This document shows, piece by piece, positions 8,445 to 18,767 of a stretch of DNA of 64,000 nucleotides (the stretch's first letter is position 1; each line of letters starts with the position of its first letter). The DNA lies in contig NZ_JAOTJC010000012.1 of assembly GCF_025628895.1 (NCBI RefSeq), forward strand, positions 124,001 through 188,000, written 5' to 3'. The position numbers and the translations under genes are program-made. This DNA is from Alteromonas salexigens (GTDB lineage: Bacteria; Pseudomonadota; Gammaproteobacteria; Enterobacterales; Alteromonadaceae). The notes under the pieces are model-generated. The model searched no databases. It was not told where the DNA came from and saw nothing but the letters and a program-made list of their open reading frames with translations.

Positions 8445-8475
8445 CCCCACTGTACTAATTGGAAAGTGGTTGTCA

Positions 8476-8503
8476 TTGCCGTCGGGCGTGGTAAGGTTAA
8501 GAT
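8476..8503 (+). promoter_or_regulatory. Sigma70-like promoter for the attenuator transcript
   Basis: TTGCCG (8476-8481) and TAAGAT (8498-8503) are separated by 16 bases. Transcription would begin near 8510, about 45 bases before the leader-peptide start. This is a visual match only. Confidence 0.4.
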
Positions 8504-8556
8504 GAAAATTACGCGCACAGGCGCCATCGTCGAATTAGATTGATCAAGGAATTCTC

Positions 8557-8601
8557 ATGCAAACCGTTACTGCACAGTATAATTATAATTTTACCTACTG
8601 A
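8557..8601 (+). CDS. Attenuator leader peptide MQTVTAQYNYNFTY
   Basis: A 14-codon open frame with a strong AAGGA ribosome-binding site seven bases upstream. The last seven residues are YNYNFTY: three Tyr and one Phe codon just before the stop. It is followed by mutually exclusive hairpins (8637-8701), the standard arrangement of ribosome-mediated transcription attenuation. Stalling at Tyr codons, or at Phe or Asn, would favour the antiterminator and let RNA polymerase reach the XRE-like gene at 8726. This is inferred from arrangement; the peptide itself is not one I recognise. Confidence 0.65.
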   Translation: MQTVTAQYNYNFTY

Positions 8602-8636
8602 TTGCGCCTGACTTGGTGTTCAGGGGCTGATATCGC

Positions 8637-8701
8637 TTCTGGGCATCGCAGGTAAACGTTTTGCAAAAAAGCCCAGAATGGTTTCCCATCTGGGCTTTTT
8701 T
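8637..8701 (+). promoter_or_regulatory. Transcription attenuator: antiterminator and intrinsic terminator
   Basis: The terminator is a 13-base-pair stem: A6GCCCAGA at 8665-8677 pairs with TCTGGGCT6 at 8689-8701 and ends in the T-run. The antiterminator is TTCTGGGC at 8637-8644, exactly complementary to GCCCAGAA at 8671-8678, so it consumes the terminator's 5' arm. Upstream, CCTGA (8607-8611) can pair with TCAGG (8620-8624) as a possible pause stem overlapping the leader stop region. The terminator ends 24 bases before the next start codon. Confidence 0.7.
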
Positions 8702-8725
8702 AATGCCCTTTGCAGAGTGAATAAC

Positions 8726-8962
8726 ATGAAAGATCTAACACTGGGGCAGATTCGCCGCCAAAACAGAGTAAAACAGGAAGTGGTAGCCATGGCGCTTTGT
8801 GTAACTGCGTCGGGGGTGAGTAAACTGGAAGCAAAGCGCATTCAGGACGTACCCTTGCAGCGGGCCGCAGCGTACTTAGCGGCGGTTGGGGGACAAATGA
8901 AAGTAGAGCTGACGTTACCGGATGGCGTAACGCTGTCGTTAGGGGAAGGGGACACGGCCTGA
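8726..8962 (+). CDS. Small XRE-like helix-turn-helix regulator behind an attenuator
   Basis: 78 residues from the ATG at 8726. A longer in-frame start at 8678 lies inside the attenuator terminator and is rejected. The N-terminal half reads as a lambda-repressor-type HTH: LGQIRRQNRVKQEVVAMALCVTASGVSKLEAKRIQDVPLQRAAAYLAAVGG. It ends with a short strand-rich tail (MKVELTLPDGVTLSL), as in many orphan or antitoxin-like XRE proteins. No toxin gene is next to it: the following gene is a secreted hydrolase on the opposite strand. Its target is unknown; control by Tyr/Phe supply is suggested by the leader. Confidence 0.75.
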   Translation: MKDLTLGQIRRQNRVKQEVVAMALCVTASGVSKLEAKRIQDVPLQRAAAYLAAVGGQMKVELTLPDGVTLSLGEGDTA

Positions 8963-10274: not shown

Positions 10275-10532
10275 AGTTTCGTTCCTTGAATTATTGGTTG
10301 AACAGCCTATACCGCAGACTATTAAAAAAAGTTCATCTTAAAGAAATAAATTAATGTTGGATAGAGTAAAAAATACTCAGTTGTGTTGCGTCTCTACTCC
10401 TGAAAAGTAGGTGGTCACCCGCTGGGTTGATGCGAGATTGCGCGCTTAGTCTGAGGCTGGCGGGTAACGCTCGCATATACGAGGAATTTTTCCTACCATA
10501 TGGGGTTAATTACAACCCGCAGCGAGACAAAC

Positions 10533-11162
10533 ATGGCCGTTCACGAGATTACCCACCCCCTTATTCAACACAAAGTCGGACTGATGCGTGATGCCGGTAT
10601 AAGCAGTAAGCATTTTAGGGAGCTGGCCGGTGAAGTCGGTAATTTGTTGACCTATGAGGCGACCCGGGCGCTGCCAACAGAGGAAGCAACCATCACCAGC
10701 TGGTCCGGGGATCAGGTACCGGTAAAACGCATTGCCGGCAAAAAAATCACCGTGGTGCCAATTTTACGGGCGGGCCTGGGGATGCTTGATGGTGTTCTGG
10801 AGCTTATCCCCAACGCCAAAATCAGCGTCGTTGGCCTGTATCGTGATGAGGAGTCACTGGAGCCGGTGGCCTACTTTGACAAGGTGGTGAAAGATATCGA
10901 TCAGCGCATGGCGCTTATTGTCGACCCCATGCTGGCCACCGGGGGCACTCTGATCGCCACCATTGATTTGTTAAAGCAAAAAGGCTGCACACAAATCATG
11001 GGGCTGTTTTTAGTGGCCGCCCCAGAAGGGATTAAAGCGGTGACAGATGCCCATCCGGATGTAGACATTTTCACTGCATCCATCGACGAAAAGCTCAACG
11101 ATAAAGGCTATATATTGCCCGGCCTGGGTGATGCCGGAGATAAAATATTCGGCACCCGTTAA
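10533..11162 (+). CDS. upp: Uracil phosphoribosyltransferase
   Basis: 209 residues, matching the E. coli enzyme (208). It converts uracil plus PRPP to UMP in pyrimidine salvage, in the cytoplasm. The sequence shows [13 protein letters not shown] at the N-terminus, [18 protein letters not shown], the PRPP-binding loop [12 protein letters not shown], and the C-terminal [18 protein letters not shown] uracil-binding end. The start at MAVHEITHP is chosen by alignment to the family; an in-frame ATG at 10500 would add 11 unlikely residues. It is a single gene followed by a hairpin terminator (11225-11242). Confidence 0.97.
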
Positions 11163-11224
11163 CATTTATTTCTCAATAAGGTTGCGGTCTGGCGATCAAC
11201 ATTTTAAAATTATGTTAATCGATT

Positions 11225-11242
11225 AAGCCCTCGTCGGGCTTT
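11225..11242 (+). terminator. Intrinsic terminator after upp
   Basis: AAGCCC (11225-11230), a five-base loop, then GGGCTTT and a short T-rich stretch (TTTACTT). It lies 62 bases after the upp stop. Confidence 0.6.
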
Positions 11243-11311
11243 ACTTCGCAAAGCACGTTTAAACAGCACTACAAATTTATACCGGCTCATTTGCTTGGTG
11301 AGGTGCAAAAT

Positions 11312-11325
11312 TGAAAGCGCTTGCA
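11312..11325. promoter_or_regulatory. LacI/GalR-type operator TGAAAGCGCTTGCA
   Basis: A 14-base near-palindrome fitting the general LacI-family pattern TGNAANCGNTTNCA, with only one base pair unmatched between halves and the typical central CG. It lies 32 bases before the LacI-family gene's ATG, so autoregulation is likely. I did not find an equally good copy upstream of the TonB receptor (18524-18767). Confidence 0.65.
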
Positions 11326-11357
11326 TGCGAGGGTGGCCCTTATTACTAAGCCAGGCA

Positions 11358-12383
11358 ATGACAAAAACAAAACTGACTCTTCGGGATGTAGCTACCAAGC
11401 TGGGCGTCTCAACTGCCACAATTTCAAACGCCTTTAACCGGCCGGACCAGTTATCAGCAGCAAAGCGTGAAGAAATTCTGGCTGCTTGCAAAACTATCGG
11501 CTATCACGGCCCAAACCGGGCCGCGCAAATTTTGCGTAAAGGTCACTCTAATATCATAGCGCTGGTGCTGGCAGACAGCATTCAGTATGTAGTAAGCGAT
11601 CCGCTGGCCAGTAAGTTTATCCAGGGTGTCTCCGGAGAGTTGCAGAAGCACAATAAGCACCTGTTGCTGTATGCCGGCGACTCAGAAACTATCATGGATA
11701 TTGTGGATTTCGTGGATGGCTTTATCTGCTATGGTGCCCCCCGCAATGCGGCACTGGCTCAGGAAATGGCCCAGCAGAGTAAACCGGTAGTGGCGGTGGA
11801 TTTTGACCTTCAGGGGTTTCCGTCTATTAACATAGACAACGAGGAGGCCGCCTATCAGGTGGCCAGGCAAGCTGTTAACGCAGACGACCATGTAGCTATT
11901 CTTGGTTTACGGCTGATTGATTCACCGAGTACCTGCCGGGTTTACGATACTCCCCTGTTTGAATGCGACCGTTCCATTTCACACCGTCGGCTGGAAGGGT
12001 ACCGTCGAGCCGTGTCAGAAGCGGGGGCGTCGGTCAGCAGTGACTGGATTTGGCATATACCGGAAAGTGACAGCACCTACGCCCGGCAAGCCGCGCGGGA
12101 AGTGCTGAACAGTCACCCGCGCCCGGATACGGTGCTGTGCATGAGTGATATCATTGCGCTTGAGTTGCTGCAGTGTGCGCTGGCCATGGACATTAAAATT
12201 CCCCAGGAACTGCGCATTACCGGCTTTGACGGTATAGACGAAGCGCTGCGAACCCGCCCCCCGTTAACCACGGTCTGTCAGGCCAGCATGGAAAAAGGCC
12301 AGCTGGCTGCACAATCGTTATTAAATCGTGAACAGAACGCCATTAAGATGCCGTTCGAGCTGAAACTGGGTGAAACCAGCTGA
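11358..12383 (+). CDS. LacI-family transcriptional regulator
   Basis: 341 residues from the ATG at 11358; an earlier in-frame start at 11295 would run through the operator. The N-terminal HTH is clear (LTLRDVATKLGVSTATISNAFNRPDQLS), followed by the hinge (RAAQILRKGHSNIIALVL). The periplasmic-binding-protein-like effector domain ends with the family's ITGFDGIDEALRTRPPLTTVCQ. It converges with the two halogenase-like genes and the TonB receptor and probably controls them in response to a sugar or sugar derivative, as LacI proteins usually do; the ligand cannot be read from the sequence. An operator-like site precedes it. Confidence 0.92.
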   Translation: MTKTKLTLRDVATKLGVSTATISNAFNRPDQLSAAKREEILAACKTIGYHGPNRAAQILRKGHSNIIALVLADSIQYVVSDPLASKFIQGVSGELQKHNKHLLLYAGDSETIMDIVDFVDGFICYGAPRNAALAQEMAQQSKPVVAVDFDLQGFPSINIDNEEAAYQVARQAVNADDHVAILGLRLIDSPSTCRVYDTPLFECDRSISHRRLEGYRRAVSEAGASVSSDWIWHIPESDSTYARQAAREVLNSHPRPDTVLCMSDIIALELLQCALAMDIKIPQELRITGFDGIDEALRTRPPLTTVCQASMEKGQLAAQSLLNREQNAIKMPFELKLGETS

Positions 12384-12457: not shown

Positions 12458-13960
12458 CTAGGCAGGGCGGTAACGGGTTAATACGTCGGTGTGCGACTGG
12501 AAATTCAGCGCACACCCTTCGAAAAAGCGGGGCAGGCCGTTTTCTTCTAATAAATCGCCTGTGCCGGGCTGGTTGGGCGCCACGGGCGGAAAAATCCCAT
12601 AGCCTGCCAGCATACAGTGCCACGATGTCGCTCCAAAATGTGATTCCAGTTGCTGTCGCTGAATTTCCTGCGTGAGGTCGCCCTTGCGATACCATACGTC
12701 CAGTAATTGTAATAACGACTCCGACAGCGCCATATTGTTACGGTTGTCCCGCCAATAGGCTGAATCATCCCGGGTATTGAGCTTGTAGTGACCCACAATG
12801 TAGTCCCGGACCCGCTCAAAGCGTTCTGAGATGATGGCGTTATATTCGTCCCGGTACTGCGGCGAGAGCTCACCAGCGGTAAACTTATCGATAAATATTT
12901 CGATACCCAGCTGTACCAGGTGGAGTGCGGTCGCCTCCAGTGGCTCGATAAAGCCCTGTGATAACCCCAGTCCCAGGCAATTGTGGCTCCAGGCTTGTTC
13001 TGTCTGGCCTACCCGCATGTTTAAAAAGCGTGCTTCCACGTCACTGTCCAGTAACCCCAGGTGGCGTCTTAGTTCCGTTTCGGCGCTATCTTTATCCAGA
13101 TAATCCGTGCTGTATACATAGCCATTGCCGGTACGGTTGGTTAACGGGATCTGCCAAGTCCAGCCATTAGATAACGCCGTAGCCCGGGTTTCCACCGGCG
13201 GTTTCTCCATGGCCGGGGTAGGCAACACCACAGCGGCACCGTTAAAAAGGTTTTCTTTAAACGAACGGAACGGAACCTTTAGCGTGTTTTGCAGCAACAG
13301 CGAACGGAATCCTGAGCAATCGACAAAAAAGTCACCCTCGATACGCCGGCCGTCGGCCAGCTGTAAGGTTTGTATATCCTTACTGGGGGCCGTGATGACC
13401 TCTGTGATATTTGCCTGAATATGCTCTACCTGATTTGCCACCGCACGGGTGCGAAGAAACTCGCCGAGCTTGCCGGAATCAAAGTGATAGCCGTATTCAA
13501 TACGAAACGGGAAGTTGTCGGGGGTGACAGGCGCCAGTCCGCGATTGGCCAGATAACCATTAAACAGAAACTTTTCTGGCGTCGTTTCAACGTCCAGACC
13601 CAGCCGACGGGTGCGACTGTTCACATGGAAAGGGCGTTCACTGAATGTGTCCAGTTGCGAAATAAAAGGGTGGCTGTACTCAGCCACACCCATCTGCGGG
13701 CTCCAGCCGGCGAAGCGAATGTTCACTTTGTAGGTGGCATGACACGCCGGCATCCACTCTGATTCGGCGATCCCCAAATCATTAAAAAACCGCTTGAGGG
13801 TGGGGGTTGAGCCTTCACCGACGCCGATGGTGCCGAGATCGGGTGATTCAATCAGCGAAATGCGTACACGCTGGTCGGCAAGGTGGTGGGCAAACAGGTT
13901 GGCGGCCATCCAGCCGGCGGTGCCACCGCCCACAATCACCATATGCATAGGTTCAGACAT
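12458..13960 (-). CDS. Flavin-dependent tryptophan-halogenase-family protein (second of a tandem pair)
   Basis: 500 residues starting one base after the stop of the upstream halogenase-like gene, with a GGGGG stretch upstream. It has the FAD-binding VIVGGGTAGWMAA at the N-terminus, a GVGEGSTPTLKRFF loop, an active-site-lysine-like position in CHATYKVNIRF, and WTWQIP (the WxWxIP signature near residue 270). Family enzymes use FADH2, O2 and halide to chlorinate or brominate tryptophan or other aromatics. Members encoded beside TonB receptors, as here, form a separate clade whose substrate is generally unknown; some may not halogenate free tryptophan. It is probably cotranscribed with the gene before it. 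Confidence 0.88.
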   Translation of the reverse strand: MSEPMHMVIVGGGTAGWMAANLFAHHLADQRVRISLIESPDLGTIGVGEGSTPTLKRFFNDLGIAESEWMPACHATYKVNIRFAGWSPQMGVAEYSHPFISQLDTFSERPFHVNSRTRRLGLDVETTPEKFLFNGYLANRGLAPVTPDNFPFRIEYGYHFDSGKLGEFLRTRAVANQVEHIQANITEVITAPSKDIQTLQLADGRRIEGDFFVDCSGFRSLLLQNTLKVPFRSFKENLFNGAAVVLPTPAMEKPPVETRATALSNGWTWQIPLTNRTGNGYVYSTDYLDKDSAETELRRHLGLLDSDVEARFLNMRVGQTEQAWSHNCLGLGLSQGFIEPLEATALHLVQLGIEIFIDKFTAGELSPQYRDEYNAIISERFERVRDYIVGHYKLNTRDDSAYWRDNRNNMALSESLLQLLDVWYRKGDLTQEIQRQQLESHFGATSWHCMLAGYGIFPPVAPNQPGTGDLLEENGLPRFFEGCALNFQSHTDVLTRYRPA

Positions 13961-13961
13961 A

Positions 13962-15452
13962 TCAGGCCCCCGTATACCGGCGCAGAAATTCGTCGTGAGC
14001 CAGCATTTGTTCCAAAGGTTGCCGTTTGGCGTCATAAACTTTTTTCAAAGTCTCGTTCAGGGTGCCTAGCTTTGGTACATCTGCAACAGGGTGGTAGTCG
14101 CGGGGCATCAGTCCCTGACCCATCATCACCTGCACCCAGGAAGAATCTCTAAAAATGTCGCTATTTTCGTTGAAAATGGCAGAAGTTTGTTTGAACGCGT
14201 CTATTTTATGTGACAGCCGCTCAGGGATCGCCATGTTTCGCATATCCCGCCAGAAGTCACTGTCATCACGCTCATTTACGTGGTAGTGCAGAATAATAAA
14301 GTCGCGAATGGTCTCAAACTCCTGCTTCGACTCCGCGTTGTACAGCGCCACCATGCTGGGCTCAATCCCCTGATTGGGAAACATTTTCATAAGCCGTACT
14401 ATGCCTGACTGGATCAGGTGAATACTGGTGGACTCCAGCGGCTCAAGAAAACCACTCGAAAGCCCTATGGCAACCACATTTTTGTGCCACTGCTCACGGG
14501 CTCGGCCAGTACGAAAACGCAGCTGGCGCGGCGTATCGAGCGCCTCAGTTTCGAGATTGCCCATGAGCGTGTCATGGGCCTTTTCATCGGACAGGTAGTT
14601 GCTGGAATAAACAATGCCGTTGCCATTGCGGTGGGTAAGGGGAATTTGCCACTGCCAACCTGAAGGACGAGCAATGCTGCGGGTGTAAGGGGCGGTATTC
14701 GCTTTTCTGGCTGACGGTACGGCCAGCGCACGGTCGGCCGGTAACCAGTGACTCCAGTCTTCGTATTCCACGCCCAGCGTTCGTTGGCTTAGCAGAGCAC
14801 GGCTGCCGGTGCAGTCGATAAACAGGTCGCCCTGAATGGTTTCGCCACTTTTTAACTGCAGCGCAGTGATAAAACCAGATTCGGGATCCTGCTGGACATG
14901 TTCAATGAGACCTTCGGTACGCACAACTCCCATCTGTTCGGCTATCTTTCGCAGGAATTGGCCGTACAGGGCAGAGTCAAAATGGTAGGCGTACTGCATT
15001 TCGAACATGGGGTTCTGGGTATTAATTTTATTAAATTTACCCTGTTCGCAGCACAGTGCGTTTAAGTCGTAATCCCACAGTGAGGCCGTGGCACCCTGCT
15101 GTTTCGCGCGTAACCAGTAATGCTGAAATCCACAAAAACCCAGCGTGGCACCCGGTGCGCCAAAGGTATGCAGGTAGCGTTCACCGGGGACACGCCAGTT
15201 TTCGAAACTGATAGCCAGCTTAATCGTGGCATGGGTTTCTCTGAGAAACGCTTTCTCGTCTATTCCCAGTGTCTGGTTAAATGTCTGGATAGGGGGAATA
15301 GTGGCTTCACCCACTCCCACGATGCCAATGTCTTCCGATTCAACAAGACGCAGGTTCACGTGTTTTGGTAACACTTTTCGAAGTAGTGACGCCGTCATCC
15401 AGCCAGCCGTGCCGCCACCGGCGATGACCACATTTCGAACAGGTTTTTGCAT
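13962..15452 (-). CDS. Flavin-dependent tryptophan-halogenase-family protein (first of a tandem pair)
   Basis: 496 residues. FAD motif VVIAGGGTAGWMTAS at residues 8-22, GVGEATIPPIQTF, lysine in THATIKLAISF, WQWQIP near residue 264, and LSSGFLEPLESTSIHLI in the C-terminal half, all matching PrnA-type halogenases. It is related to but clearly different from its downstream neighbour (same motifs, different sequence), so the pair looks like an old duplication or two-component set. It follows the TonB receptor on the same strand after a terminator, so it may have its own promoter in the 146-base gap. Confidence 0.88.
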   Translation of the reverse strand: MQKPVRNVVIAGGGTAGWMTASLLRKVLPKHVNLRLVESEDIGIVGVGEATIPPIQTFNQTLGIDEKAFLRETHATIKLAISFENWRVPGERYLHTFGAPGATLGFCGFQHYWLRAKQQGATASLWDYDLNALCCEQGKFNKINTQNPMFEMQYAYHFDSALYGQFLRKIAEQMGVVRTEGLIEHVQQDPESGFITALQLKSGETIQGDLFIDCTGSRALLSQRTLGVEYEDWSHWLPADRALAVPSARKANTAPYTRSIARPSGWQWQIPLTHRNGNGIVYSSNYLSDEKAHDTLMGNLETEALDTPRQLRFRTGRAREQWHKNVVAIGLSSGFLEPLESTSIHLIQSGIVRLMKMFPNQGIEPSMVALYNAESKQEFETIRDFIILHYHVNERDDSDFWRDMRNMAIPERLSHKIDAFKQTSAIFNENSDIFRDSSWVQVMMGQGLMPRDYHPVADVPKLGTLNETLKKVYDAKRQPLEQMLAHDEFLRRYTGA

Positions 15453-15598: not shown

Positions 15599-18523
15599 TT
15601 AGTAGAACGAGTAGTTCAGGTTAAGCATATAAGATGGGCCGAACTCCCGACGCAGGGTCACAATGCCATTGCTGTCGATAGTTTCTTCTTTCTCGTCGGT
15701 CAGGTTAGTGCCCTGTAATGACACCCGCAGACCTTCCAGATACTCAATACCACTGTCTTCAAAGTCGTAGCTGATTTGTGCATCGACCTGGGTTACCGCA
15801 TCGCGGGTGGCGGCATCGATCTTGTTCGAGCCCCCACGCTGGTAGGTCAGATACTCAGAACGGTCCGTCGCAGCAACCCGCACTTCAAGGCCGTTCATTT
15901 CGTAGTACGCCGTGATTGAGTACACTTCGTCGGACTGGCCCGGAATGGCCGAGCCATCTTCCAGTTCAGCGTCAATGAAGGTGGCCGACGCTGCGATACC
16001 AAAACCTTCCAGCGCGTCAGTTAGCATGCTCAGGGGGACGTTAGCAGTTAGCTCAGCCCCTTTAAGTTCGCCTTCCAGGCCGTCTTCGAAGAATGAATAG
16101 AAGCCAAAGTCCGGTGGCGTGACCAGATCACCTGCCTCGTACGGTGTATCTTCCGGACCATAGTTACCGTCCGTGTCGATGACGCGGTCATGGAAGCCAG
16201 GAATGAAGTAGTTCGCGCCTTCGTTAGTCGGGTCATTGGTGAAGTCGATTAGCTGGTTGCCGTCACGGGTCCAGTTAACCAGATCTTTATAGAACACCGC
16301 TACCGATACATAGCCTTCGTCATCGAAGTAATTCTCAAATGAGATATCGAAGTTGTTAGCTTCCAGCGGACGCAGTCTGGGGTTACCCGAGAACTTGGAC
16401 CAGGGCGAGCCGTATTCTTCCACTGCCGCTTCGGAGTTTGGCGTAGCAATCAGCTCGATGTTTTGATCGAATTTCACAAAGCCTGAGGCTTTCATTTGGT
16501 CGATACGGGCGCGGCTGATGGTTTTGCTTGCCGCCAGGCGCAGGAAGCGATTTTCAGCAAGCTCAATGTTCACGTTCACACTGGGCAGGAAGTGGGAATA
16601 CTCGTCACCATCGGTAATCACACAGTCGGCATCTACCACGCCGTTGCCATCATCATCACACACGGCAAAGTTGTCGCCGACAATACCAATGAAACCGGAT
16701 GAACTCTGATCGGTTTGTACGTATTGGGCACCTAAGTTACCTGATACCGGGAAGTCACCAATATCGGTATCAAAGTCGACCATGGCATACAGGGTGATAA
16801 TTTCTTCATCAACTGTATAGGTATCACCCAGACGATCTGGCTCCAGCAGTCCCGCATCGTTCAGGGTGTATTCGCCGTCCTGGTATGGGGCGAATCCGTT
16901 ATAGGCCACTACCTGACCTAAGCCTGCCCAGCGCAGATCGGCAAGGCCGTTGTACAGGTATTCTGAAGGAATGGAATCAGAATAGGGATAGGCTGACGCA
17001 GTCGCAAAGAAGCCTTTGTTATCTTTTGCTTTGAAGCGGTCGCTGTAGTTAATACCCGCGGTAAATTTCGTGACCATGTTCCAGTCGACGTAACCCACAA
17101 CTTCCAGACGAGTGGTAGTCAGCTCTTCTTCGAAATCGGCGAAGTTCAGGAAGCCGTCCTGGGCATTAAAGTAGCTAAAGGGGTCGCCATTGGCTTGTAG
17201 GACATTTGTCGAGAACTGGTCGGCAATATTTGCCATACCGCCACCCCATACCTGCGGGCCGGTAAGCTGTAGCAAACTAGGATCAGAGAAAGCTTCAAGT
17301 CCGGTGCTACCCGTGAAGAAAATGCCATCCGGGCTCATTTGAAACTGCCGGGTACCAAATTCATCTGAGCTAAGCGCCCCAGAACGTGCAAGGCCTGCAT
17401 AAGATTCGCCGCGCAAGTCTCGTTTGCTGGACTCACTGTCTGCCACATCCAGTTCAACTGTCCAGTTGTCGTTCACGTTATAAGTTACGTTCAGGCCAAA
17501 GGTTTGCAGTTCACCGTCTTTCTGAGCCGGGTCGGTTCGCAATACCGGGTTCACACCAACCTGGGTGCCGGATGCATTAATGCCGCTGCCGGTGATATTT
17601 TCTGCCGCAAAGGGTTCTATGAAGCCGCGGATTACGCCTGAGTCTGAGTAGTCAATATCCAGTGCATCAACAACGATATCCAGATCATCGGTAGGGCGCC
17701 ACTGAACGATAGCAGACATGGTGTCCCGCTCCAGCTCCCGGCTGATTGCCTGTGTATCCAGGCCGAACGGAGTAATCTGACCGTCCTCGTTGGCGCCGTA
17801 TCCCCACACACCGTATTTACGTTCATTACGGGGTGACTCGGTGGTCGCCAGTGATACAGCTACACCCAGCGTATCATCTGCAAATTTCTCTACGAACGAC
17901 AATGCATAGCGTTTGCCTTTGTTATCAAACTCCGGGTTATCGGAATCGTTACCGCCCACTTCATAAACACCGGTCAGTGTGAGTGTTTCCTGAGCAGCCA
18001 GCGGGCGAACGGTTTGCAGGTCTACGGTGCCGCCAATACCCTGCACTAACAGAGTGGCATCGGTGGTTTTGTAAATGGTGGCGCCGGTCATGATTTCAGC
18101 AGGGTATAGATCGTATTCAACACCCCGGTTATCACCGATACCAATTAATTCACGGCCGTTTAGCGACGTACCGGTAAAGTCTTCCTTGAAACCGCGAACT
18201 GAAATACCGGAAGTACGACCGCCTACACGTTCGCCGGCCAGCCCGGGCAACCGTGCCAGTGATTCGGCAATTGAAGAGTCAGGAAGTTTACCAATGTCTT
18301 CAGCTGAAATGGCTTCGACAATGGAGGAGTTATCCATCTTGACAGCCTGCGCCCGGATTAACGAGCCCCGGATCCCTTTAACTGCAATAACCTCAACATT
18401 TTTGTCGGCGTCTTTTGCGGCGTTGTCGGTGTCTGTTTGCTGTGAAAGTGCGCTGCCTGAATAGATTGCTGAAGACACTGCCAGAGATAGCAGTGCAGGC
18501 TTAAATAATTGGTTTCTCTTCAT
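15599..18523 (-). CDS. TonB-dependent outer-membrane receptor
   Basis: 974 residues from MKRNQLF; an upstream in-frame ATG at 18559 is less likely because the signal peptide begins here (cleavage near ALSQQ). After a short linker with a TonB-box-like VEVIAV comes the plug domain (about residues 40-175), with IVEAISAEDIGKLPDSSIAESLARLPG and SVRGFKEDFTGTSLNGRE. A long 22-strand barrel follows and ends in the aromatic MLNLNYSFY. The plug sequence is the type found in large Xanthomonas/Caulobacter/Alteromonas receptors that take up oligosaccharides or other complex nutrients. With the LacI regulator and halogenase-like flavoproteins it forms a probable uptake locus; the substrate is unknown. Confidence 0.93.
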   Translation of the reverse strand: MKRNQLFKPALLSLAVSSAIYSGSALSQQTDTDNAAKDADKNVEVIAVKGIRGSLIRAQAVKMDNSSIVEAISAEDIGKLPDSSIAESLARLPGLAGERVGGRTSGISVRGFKEDFTGTSLNGRELIGIGDNRGVEYDLYPAEIMTGATIYKTTDATLLVQGIGGTVDLQTVRPLAAQETLTLTGVYEVGGNDSDNPEFDNKGKRYALSFVEKFADDTLGVAVSLATTESPRNERKYGVWGYGANEDGQITPFGLDTQAISRELERDTMSAIVQWRPTDDLDIVVDALDIDYSDSGVIRGFIEPFAAENITGSGINASGTQVGVNPVLRTDPAQKDGELQTFGLNVTYNVNDNWTVELDVADSESSKRDLRGESYAGLARSGALSSDEFGTRQFQMSPDGIFFTGSTGLEAFSDPSLLQLTGPQVWGGGMANIADQFSTNVLQANGDPFSYFNAQDGFLNFADFEEELTTTRLEVVGYVDWNMVTKFTAGINYSDRFKAKDNKGFFATASAYPYSDSIPSEYLYNGLADLRWAGLGQVVAYNGFAPYQDGEYTLNDAGLLEPDRLGDTYTVDEEIITLYAMVDFDTDIGDFPVSGNLGAQYVQTDQSSSGFIGIVGDNFAVCDDDGNGVVDADCVITDGDEYSHFLPSVNVNIELAENRFLRLAASKTISRARIDQMKASGFVKFDQNIELIATPNSEAAVEEYGSPWSKFSGNPRLRPLEANNFDISFENYFDDEGYVSVAVFYKDLVNWTRDGNQLIDFTNDPTNEGANYFIPGFHDRVIDTDGNYGPEDTPYEAGDLVTPPDFGFYSFFEDGLEGELKGAELTANVPLSMLTDALEGFGIAASATFIDAELEDGSAIPGQSDEVYSITAYYEMNGLEVRVAATDRSEYLTYQRGGSNKIDAATRDAVTQVDAQISYDFEDSGIEYLEGLRVSLQGTNLTDEKEETIDSNGIVTLRREFGPSYMLNLNYSFY

Positions 18524-18767
18524 TTTGTGTGCCCTTAATCGACCTTGTGTTAGATGCAACTGGCGTTACATGACATTAACAATAGTGAAACATTGTTCGA
18601 TAATCAAGCATTTTGCAAAAAAAATCTTAATTGATTAAGTTTCTTGTGCAATGCGGCTTGAGCTGGAAGTTGGAGTGACCGCGGGGGTGTAGCCTTAATG
18701 CTTTCAGTCTGGCGTCGCCTGTTGCAAAAATGTTTCGTGCATCAATGCGTTCAAAAGGAGGTCGGGC
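18524..18767 (-). promoter_or_regulatory. Upstream region of the TonB receptor gene
   Basis: A 244-base non-coding stretch. It contains an AT-rich inverted repeat, CTTAAT-TG-ATTAAG (about 18626-18639), and a weak dyad around TGAAACATTGTTCG (about 18586-18599), either of which could be a regulator site. No clean copy of the LacI-type palindrome found at 11312 is seen. Confidence 0.35.

What the first reader, a model, noticed from the sequence alone, without database searches (positions are those of the whole stretch)
8557..8725. Tyr/Phe-type transcription attenuator in front of an orphan XRE regulator
A 14-codon leader with a strong ribosome-binding site ends in YNYNFTY. A 13-bp terminator with a T-run follows, and the antiterminator arm TTCTGGGC (8637-8644) pairs exactly with the terminator's 5' arm (8671-8678). 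This is a complete attenuator, yet it controls a small DNA-binding protein rather than an amino-acid biosynthesis enzyme. It could be a regulatory relay from aromatic amino-acid supply to gene control.
Basis: partly seen in the sequence, partly recalled or inferred. Interest (0 to 1): 0.7.

Follow-up and report, generated by a model that had tools for sequence, protein, structure and literature searches.

The report
Codon-matched attenuators controlling spare tRNA operons
A short leader peptide seems to make transcription of a small DNA-binding protein depend on how a ribosome reads tyrosine codons, and relatives of this switch in other bacteria sit in front of extra tRNA genes whose tRNAs read the codons found in their leaders.

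Summary
In detail: leader ORF 8557-8601, antiterminator arm 8637-8644, terminator 8665-8701, XRE gene 8726-8962. The anatomy is fuller: five alternating segments (1:2+3:4 read-through; 2:3+4:5 termination) plus a helix from leader start to linker. Leader and XRE occur in the same 21 of 36 genomes of the genus (Alteromonas); Tyr codon 10 is kept in 21/21, codon 8 in 20/21.

The XRE is not an orphan. Its closest relatives found outside Alteromonas (6 loci, 5 genomes) share the plan, with different leaders: operator-like repeat (TTTCC-N5-GGAAA in five, a variant in one), leader, attenuator, XRE, and tRNA genes on the same strand. Leader codons match those tRNAs in all six: Phe; Ser(AGY)+Pro; Tyr+Trp; Tyr+Trp+Ile(AUA); Trp+Ile(AUA); Ser(UCN)+Tyr (13 of 13 tRNAs, four of them read by eye; best of 720 permutations). 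Of four unit tRNAs compared with their genome's housekeeping copy, three are strongly diverged.

Best reading: stalling for lack of one tRNA switches on the regulator and a replacement tRNA. The window's member has no tRNA gene. No expression data exist; ten literature searches listed no such system. Nearest analogue: the Anabaena trn operon.

The parts
8451..8465 (.). degenerate operator-like inverted repeat (TGTAC-TAATT-GGAAA); consensus in relatives TTTCC-N5-GGAAA
   Evidence: 2 mismatches to consensus here; exact in 16 of 20 Alteromonas loci L106-L125, one mismatch in 4, at 267-420 nt before XRE; TTTCC-N5-GGAAA in 5 of 6 non-Alteromonas units, TGTCC-N5-GGACA in the sixth; 0 exact among 56 fetched tRNA-cluster stretches
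8470..8497 (+). sigma-70-like promoter, TTGTCA-16-TAAGGT (TATGGT at -10 in most relatives)
   Evidence: read by eye from sequence and from 21 upstream regions (not visible within 190 nt in L020-L022); not tested experimentally
8546..8550 (+). Shine-Dalgarno AAGGA of the leader
8557..8601 (+). leader ORF MQTVTAQYNYNFTY*
   Evidence: Tyr codons at 8, 10 and 14
8559..8568 (+). segment 0, inside the leader start; pairs with 8655-8664 (one mismatch in the window)
8604..8611 (+). segment 1 (GCGCCTGA), just after the stop codon; pairs with segment 2
8614..8627 (+). segment 2 (TGGTGTTCAGGGGC); pairs with 1 or 3
8635..8648 (+). segment 3, contains antiterminator arm TTCTGGGC 8637-8644; pairs with 2 or 4
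8655..8664 (+). linker 3b AACGTTTTGC, partner of segment 0
8665..8701 (+). intrinsic terminator, segments 4 and 5 (13-bp stem, T6)
8704..8708 (+). TGCCC after the terminator; can pair with GGGC of segment 5 or 3
   Evidence: 21 of 21 Alteromonas; 5 of 6 other units, absent in L126
8726..8962 (+). XRE/HigA-fold DNA-binding protein, 78 aa
10500..11162 (+). upp (uracil phosphoribosyltransferase; named by eye, not scanned), constant downstream neighbour in Alteromonas
   Evidence: 21 of 21 Alteromonas contexts; probably not part of the unit

Best explanation
The window holds a ribosome-mediated transcription attenuator of a family that couples a HigA-fold regulator (and, in the members found outside Alteromonas, extra tRNA genes) to the supply of particular tRNAs. 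When the ribosome translates the leader fully it sits on the stop codon and covers segment 1, so 2:3 forms and the 4:5 terminator stops transcription. When the ribosome stalls at the control codons for lack of the cognate charged tRNA, segment 1 stays free, 1:2 forms, segment 3 captures segment 4, and polymerase reads through into XRE (and tRNAs). Without translation, helix 0:3b would hinder 3:4 and keep the gene off (supported in the window and in three other units, borderline in one, absent in two). In relatives the leader codons are those read by the operon's own tRNAs, so read-through would refill the missing tRNA. XRE probably binds the TTTCC-N5-GGAAA repeat at its own promoter. In the window the control codon is Tyr and no tRNA gene follows. 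Shown: anatomy, conservation, codon-tRNA match. Inferred: stalling logic, sensed signal, autoregulation, function.
For: Leader and XRE in the same 21 of 36 genus genomes. Same plan in 6 further loci from 5 genomes: in these six and the window, operator to terminator arm 198-221 nt and leader stop to terminator arm 45-69 nt; 1:2 hairpin right after the stop in 7 of 7; antiterminator-arm shuffle fraction 0.003 (window), 0.027, 0.01, 0.024, 0.007, 0.064, 0.006. tRNA genes on the XRE strand in 6 of 6. 13 of 13 tRNAs have a cognate codon in their leader; the true pairing ranks 1 of 720 (whole leader) and 2 of 720 (last 10 codons), and 1 of 24 with the three related loci reduced to one; Fisher P 8e-7 and 9e-11 against window codon usage. 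Control: of 45 loci of weaker XRE relatives (43 distinct places) 2 have an ARAGORN tRNA, on the other strand. Phe, Tyr and Ile2 unit tRNAs are 65-68% identical to the same genome's housekeeping copy, against 85-95% between genera. AlphaFold model matches HigA antitoxins. One unit adjoins rtcR, an SPFH/slipin-type gene and rtcB.
Against: No expression data. ARAGORN finds no tRNA in the window or in 20 Alteromonas loci, so the tRNA link rests on relatives. Covariation inside the genus is almost nil (one compensatory pair, 35 of 500 shuffles as good). Helix 0:3b is not significant in L146 (0.69) and L126 (0.43-0.64) and borderline in L147 (0.08-0.09); the L203 antiterminator is borderline (0.064). 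Hairpin 2:3 is the computed fold in window, L146, L202 and L126 but was paired by eye in L147, L148 and L203, where 1:2 is the computed fold. Four of 13 tRNAs (Tyr and Trp of L148, Trp of L202 and of L203) were missed by ARAGORN and read by eye; three gave only sub-threshold tRNA-Sec matches, the fourth was not so scanned. The same ARAGORN was used for the controls. The window's operator copy is degenerate, and operator distance varies inside Alteromonas. The L148 leader has a poor SD (2 of 6). The Ferrimonas unit has its tRNAs before XRE, a little-diverged Tyr tRNA (91.8%), 34% XRE identity to the window and, over its whole leader, no significant codon excess (P 0.12).
Confidence: 0.75

Rival explanations
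1. Classical amino-acid attenuator: the leader reports tyrosine (or aromatic amino acid) supply and XRE relays it to metabolic genes; the tRNA neighbours of relatives are incidental.
For: Tyr codons conserved; ribosome stalling cannot tell lack of amino acid from lack of tRNA.
Against: Leaders of relatives follow the tRNA set of their operon, including Ser, Pro and Ile(AUA); by eye, no aromatic biosynthesis or transport gene recurs beside the unit in the contexts listed.
Confidence: 0.15
2. Sensor of tRNA modification: Alteromonas leaders are rich in codons of queuosine tRNAs (Tyr, Asn, His, Asp), or leaders in general in codons of ms2i6A tRNAs (UNN), and hypomodification slows the ribosome.
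For: Tyr/Asn/His/Asp residues number 4-7 of 13-14 in the 21 Alteromonas leaders and Asn11 is invariant.
Against: Other units use Pro, Ser(AGY), Ile(AUA) and Trp codons that fall outside one or both groups. The modification rules are recalled, not tested.
Confidence: 0.05
3. Nascent-peptide arrest (TnaC-like): the conserved peptide itself stalls the ribosome on binding a small molecule.
For: Peptide is conserved within Alteromonas (M[QR]NVxxxYFYNF).
Against: Peptides differ between genera (only L202 and L203 are alike) while the RNA plan is kept; the MQNV part is also explained by helix 0:3b.
Confidence: 0.05

Closest known systems
Amino-acid operon attenuators with leader peptides (his, trp, pheA, pheST types; recalled)
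   Same: short ORF with control codons, mutually exclusive hairpins, intrinsic terminator, stall-dependent read-through (inferred)
   Different: five alternating segments with the anti-antiterminator after the stop codon; the genes controlled are a HigA-fold regulator and tRNA genes, not biosynthetic enzymes or synthetases; no Rfam match in the window
Anabaena trn operon and TrcR (PMC10272220; abstract, passages and section 10 read)
   Same: extra tRNA genes under an autoregulated transcription factor, induced by translation stress; its targets include rtcB, and a slipin gene is in the table of changed genes; one of our units adjoins rtcR, an SPFH gene and rtcB
   Different: TrcR is ribbon-helix-helix and encoded apart (all0854; the trn operon is on a megaplasmid); the word stems 'attenuat' and 'leader' do not occur in the held text
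HigBA toxin-antitoxin, HigA antitoxin
   Same: predicted fold (6ltz HigA, 7ewc HigA2, 6lty HigA3); weaker sequence relatives look, by eye, like antitoxins behind toxin genes
   Different: no toxin gene in the unit; long attenuated leader; tRNA genes
Phage tRNAs that offset tRNA-cleaving defences (retron-Eco7, Septu; PMC13096335 passages, PMC11555353 listing with abstract start)
   Same: extra tRNA, including Tyr, supplied when the host's tRNA is cut
   Different: here host-encoded, with a leader peptide as sensor; no cleavage evidence

Membership tests
Ribosome-mediated (leader peptide) attenuator | translated short ORF with SD upstream of the terminator | tested here: met
   (conserved frame and SD; translation itself not measured)
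Ribosome-mediated (leader peptide) attenuator | control codons enriched and conserved | tested here: met
   Tyr 3 of 13, P 0.0098; 21/21 and 20/21 at codons 10 and 8
Ribosome-mediated (leader peptide) attenuator | terminator and mutually exclusive antiterminator and anti-antiterminator | tested here: met
   covariation inside the genus inconclusive
Ribosome-mediated (leader peptide) attenuator | read-through rises when the control tRNA is limiting | not testable with these tools
   needs an experiment
Amino-acid biosynthesis attenuators of Rfam | match to a family model | tested here: not met
   0 gathering-level matches in the 64-kb window
Amino-acid biosynthesis attenuators of Rfam | controls a gene for making or charging that amino acid | tested here: not met
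   the next gene is XRE; neighbours listed, read by eye
T-box riboswitch | T-box RNA model match | tested here: not met
   no match; on 10 related loci gave tRNA matches only
HigBA toxin-antitoxin system | HigA-like fold of the protein | tested here: met
   (E 7.5e-5, TM 0.70; predicted model)
HigBA toxin-antitoxin system | toxin gene next to the antitoxin | tested here: not met
   only the leader lies between promoter and XRE; the one constant neighbour in Alteromonas is upp
Anabaena trn/TrcR system | ribbon-helix-helix regulator | tested here: not met
   HTH_31 and HTH_37, HigA-like helical fold
Anabaena trn/TrcR system | tRNA genes under the regulator, induced by translation stress | not testable with these tools
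   tRNA genes beside XRE in 6 units outside the window; induction not measured

The most novel reading that the evidence does not exclude
An inducible tRNA-replacement system: a leader peptide measures one specific tRNA through its own codons and, when that tRNA is destroyed or uncharged (for example by tRNA-cutting toxins or phage-triggered defences), switches on a diverged, presumably cleavage-resistant copy of the very same tRNA together with an antitoxin-like regulator. The Alteromonas branch keeps sensor and regulator without the tRNA.
Probability: 0.4. Interest if true: 0.92.

Novelty: new variant of a known kind. Interest (0 to 1): 0.8.

Why it matters
Leader-peptide attenuation is textbook control of amino-acid enzymes. 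Its use on tRNA genes, with leader codons matched to the tRNA made, would be a direct feedback loop on tRNA supply; the listings of my literature searches showed nothing of the kind. It would give a natural readout of single-tRNA depletion, explain some odd extra tRNA genes in bacteria, and connect attenuation to the tRNA-cutting conflicts between bacteria, phages and toxins. The codon-tRNA rule predicts the signal of each unit from sequence alone, so it is directly testable.

Tried and rejected
Covariance model R1 over 295 family and 197 order genomes: outside Alteromonas no score above 40.2 bits. I first read 14 weak matches (10, 2, 2) and took all for terminators behind other genes; on a second look one of them, L076, does look like an attenuator (SD, leader MPSLFILNTFSKELFN, hairpin after the stop, terminator, ATGCCC) but has no operator, and no tRNA by ARAGORN nor visible XRE in the 3.1 kb held. 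re-scanned all 48 weak-match loci held (L056-L103): 0 exact operators, one with one mismatch (L067), 0 tRNAs within about 1.1 kb downstream by ARAGORN; two carry known-looking leaders (L087 with HHHHHH, L095 with WWW; his and trp types, recalled). Weak matches without a locus were not read, except G118 C12:206280-206370, which is the leader of unit L135/L146.

ms2i6A (UNN codon) idea: looked good on the first leaders, dropped when Ser(AGY), Pro and Ile(AUA) codons matched their tRNAs.

Second small ORF ATGCCC... ending at the XRE start: frame not kept between species (read). Viral contigs (3 scans) and phages: no relative. Plasmids: searches gave two weak places each, three of the four read, no ARAGORN tRNA in L206 or L207; one search hit 1404 records, mostly annotated as generic XRE genes in the 20 listed, not read. 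Other tRNA clusters: 10 of 55 have some terminator within 400 nt upstream, not followed further. Correction: my notes say 12 of 12 tRNAs; the count is 13 of 13.

Full report
OBSERVATION. The stretch 8540-8725 folds better than 199 of 200 dinucleotide shuffles; the antiterminator arm pairs with the terminator arm better than 997 of 1000 shuffles. Rfam has no gathering-level match anywhere in the window.

CONSERVATION. The XRE protein and the leader DNA are found in the same 21 of 36 genomes of the genus, the window's own included; the leader DNA in none of 24 genomes of other families of the order, the protein weakly (E 7e-5) in one of them. Record titles from a protein scan name the genus Alteromonas. 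SD, leader, segments and terminator align across 21 loci, the DNA before them poorly. The leader keeps Tyr at codon 10 in 21 of 21 (TAT 15, TAC 6), Tyr at codon 8 in 20 of 21 and Asn at codon 11 in 21 of 21; Phe at codons 9 and 12 is replaced in 3 and 3 of 21.

ANATOMY. RNAalifold on 21 loci gives hairpin 2:3 plus terminator 4:5 (99.1% of cells paired). The alternative 1:2 plus 3:4 pairs in 92.9% of cells; 1:2 has one fixed mismatch, and the outermost pair of 3:4 is missing in 4 of 19 distinct rows. Segments 2 and 3 pair through fixed G-U pairs, as expected when each must also pair elsewhere. Because the stems hardly vary, covariation inside the genus says nothing (one compensatory pair; 35 of 500 shuffles as good). 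A further helix joins the leader start to the linker before the terminator: at most 2.1% of shuffles are as good in the window and in each of ten other Alteromonas loci tried (of 20 held).

RELATIVES. The covariance model found no further member at good score in 295 family and 197 order genomes. XRE profiles did: with the Alteromonas profile A3 over 295 family genomes, G118 (E 5e-19) and G105 (7e-17 and 3e-12), and nothing comparable in 369 class genomes; with A4, which had been widened with those three, G060 (1.5e-19) and G119 (1e-18), and nothing further below 8e-11 in 394 order genomes apart from Alteromonas and G060. A sixth, weaker one is Ferrimonas marina. All six have the plan upstream: operator-like repeat, leader, hairpin 1:2 directly after the stop, 3:4, terminator; 2:3 is the computed fold in L146, L202 and L126 and was paired by eye in the other three; TGCCC follows the T-run in five of six. 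In these six and the window, operator to terminator arm is 198-221 nt and leader stop to terminator arm 45-69 nt; inside Alteromonas the operator lies 267-420 nt before XRE. In each of the seven the chosen leader is the only ATG ORF of 7 or more codons, nested starts apart, that ends 45-70 nt before the terminator; in L126 the exact start is open. Leaders differ between genera except L202 and L203, and stems mostly differ, though all terminators share a GCCC or GCCGGG core. Helix 0:3b: at most 2.1% of shuffles as good in L148, L202 and L203, 8-9% in L147, no support in L146 and L126; over six units the own pairing ranks 3 of 720.

tRNA GENES. On the XRE strand, behind XRE (five loci) or between terminator and XRE (Ferrimonas), lie tRNA genes: L146 Phe; L147 Ser(GCT), Pro; L148 Tyr, Trp; L202 Tyr, Trp, Ile2(CAT); L203 Trp, Ile2(CAT); L126 Ser(CGA), Tyr, Ser(TGA). 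ARAGORN found 9 of the 13; it calls the CAT genes Met, and I assign Ile2 from the GGCCC...GGGCC acceptor stem shared with a housekeeping gene (the rule is recalled). The other four were read by eye; three give sub-threshold tRNA-Sec matches, the fourth (Trp of L203) was not scanned at low threshold. Some are odd: the L148 Tyr gene has no normal D arm (read).

MATCH OF CODONS AND tRNAs. Each of the 13 tRNAs has at least one cognate codon in its own leader (decoding rules recalled). Ferrimonas ends RYSYSSIT with TAT TCG TAT TCA TCC; L147 carries CCA, CCG, AGT, AGT, CCA; L148 TAT TGG TAT; L202 ATA TAT, then TGG TAT. Among 720 ways to pair leaders with tRNA sets the real one scores best over whole leaders and second over the last ten codons (L148 and L202 overlap); with the three related loci reduced to one it is best of 24 each time. 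Against window codon usage (42 ORFs, 19,200 codons) Fisher's P is 8e-7 (whole) and 9e-11 (last ten), or 9e-6 and 2e-9 with four loci. Codon usage of the other genomes was not used, and the last-ten measure was chosen after seeing the leaders. Single loci are weaker: whole-leader P 0.0024, 0.0039, 0.03, 0.0059, 0.039 and, for Ferrimonas, 0.12.

CONTROLS. Of 45 loci of weaker XRE relatives (43 distinct places; further weak matches had no locus), two have an ARAGORN tRNA nearby, on the other strand. None of 56 fetched tRNA-cluster stretches has the exact operator; 10 of 55 tRNA clusters have some terminator within 400 nt upstream.

EXTRA COPIES. Housekeeping Phe (G118), Tyr and Ile2 (G060) and Tyr (Ferrimonas) exist elsewhere in the same genomes (the tRNA list was cut at its low-score end). 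Unit copies are 65.8, 65.3 and 67.9% identical to them, Ferrimonas Tyr 91.8%; housekeeping genes of different genera are 84.7-95.3% alike. Ser, Pro and Trp were not compared.

THE PROTEIN. HTH_31 and HTH_37 by Pfam, near the cut-offs; PADLOC gives HTH_VI at E 1.4e-6 for the L146 protein and 0.013 for the window's. The AlphaFold model (pLDDT 85.5) matches HigA antitoxins. No toxin gene lies between promoter and XRE. The repeat TTTCC-N5-GGAAA near the promoter is the candidate operator; binding is inferred.

CONTEXT. In Alteromonas XRE is followed by upp in 21 of 21 contexts, in six with another gene between, and ARAGORN finds no tRNA. In G060 the unit lies behind rtcR, with an SPFH gene and rtcB divergent, an RNA-repair set; the TrcR paper states that rtcB is induced by damaged tRNAs in Salmonella (passage). 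The other units showed no such neighbour by eye.

LITERATURE. Seven searches on tRNA genes or Alteromonas with leader peptides or attenuation and three on tRNA cutting, RtcB and spare tRNA arrays of open PMC papers listed no tRNA operon under a leader-peptide attenuator. I saw listings, not the papers, save passages or sections of two; subscription papers are mostly not held. The nearest is the Anabaena trn operon with TrcR. [quoted passage not shown]

HOW IT WORKS. Stalling at control codons leaves segment 1 free, so 1:2 and 3:4 form and polymerase reads on; a ribosome at the stop codon covers segment 1, so 2:3 and 4:5 form. Cognate codons lie one to ten codons before the stop, most of them far enough upstream to leave segment 1 free. 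The logic is inferred from geometry. The replacement-tRNA role is the best use I can see for diverged tRNA copies under such a switch, and remains a hypothesis.

Noticed in passing
L076:1500-1700 region (minus strand of the locus), order-level genome G343: Another attenuator-like leader (MPSLFILNTFSKELFN, hairpin after the stop, terminator, ATGCCC) in front of unnamed small ORFs and a 329-aa protein; no operator, tRNA or XRE seen. Possibly the same kind of switch with other cargo.
   Followed up: partly
L202:9669-9883 (+): A trio of odd tRNA-like genes (anticodons read as AGA, CC?, AGT) ahead of an SPFH gene and rtcB, divergent from rtcR; perhaps tRNA-like RNAs of the RNA-repair operon.
   Followed up: partly
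L148:5719-5893 (-): Tyr- and Trp-type tRNA-like genes missed by ARAGORN; the Tyr one lacks a normal D arm and both give only sub-threshold tRNA-Sec matches.
   Followed up: partly
window 8704-8708: TGCCC just after the terminator is invariant in 21 Alteromonas loci and present in 5 of 6 other units; it could pair with GGGC of segment 5 and stabilise the read-through state.
   Followed up: partly
L087, L095: Weak matches of the covariance model hold leaders with HHHHHH and WWW, by look the classical his and trp attenuators.
   Followed up: no
window 12458-15452 (-): Two adjacent flavin-dependent tryptophan-halogenase-like proteins near a large TonB-dependent receptor (15599-18559); named by eye only.
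   Followed up: no
window 10500-12383: upp followed by a LacI-type regulator (names by eye) is the constant neighbourhood of the Alteromonas unit (21 and 18 of 21 contexts).
   Followed up: partly
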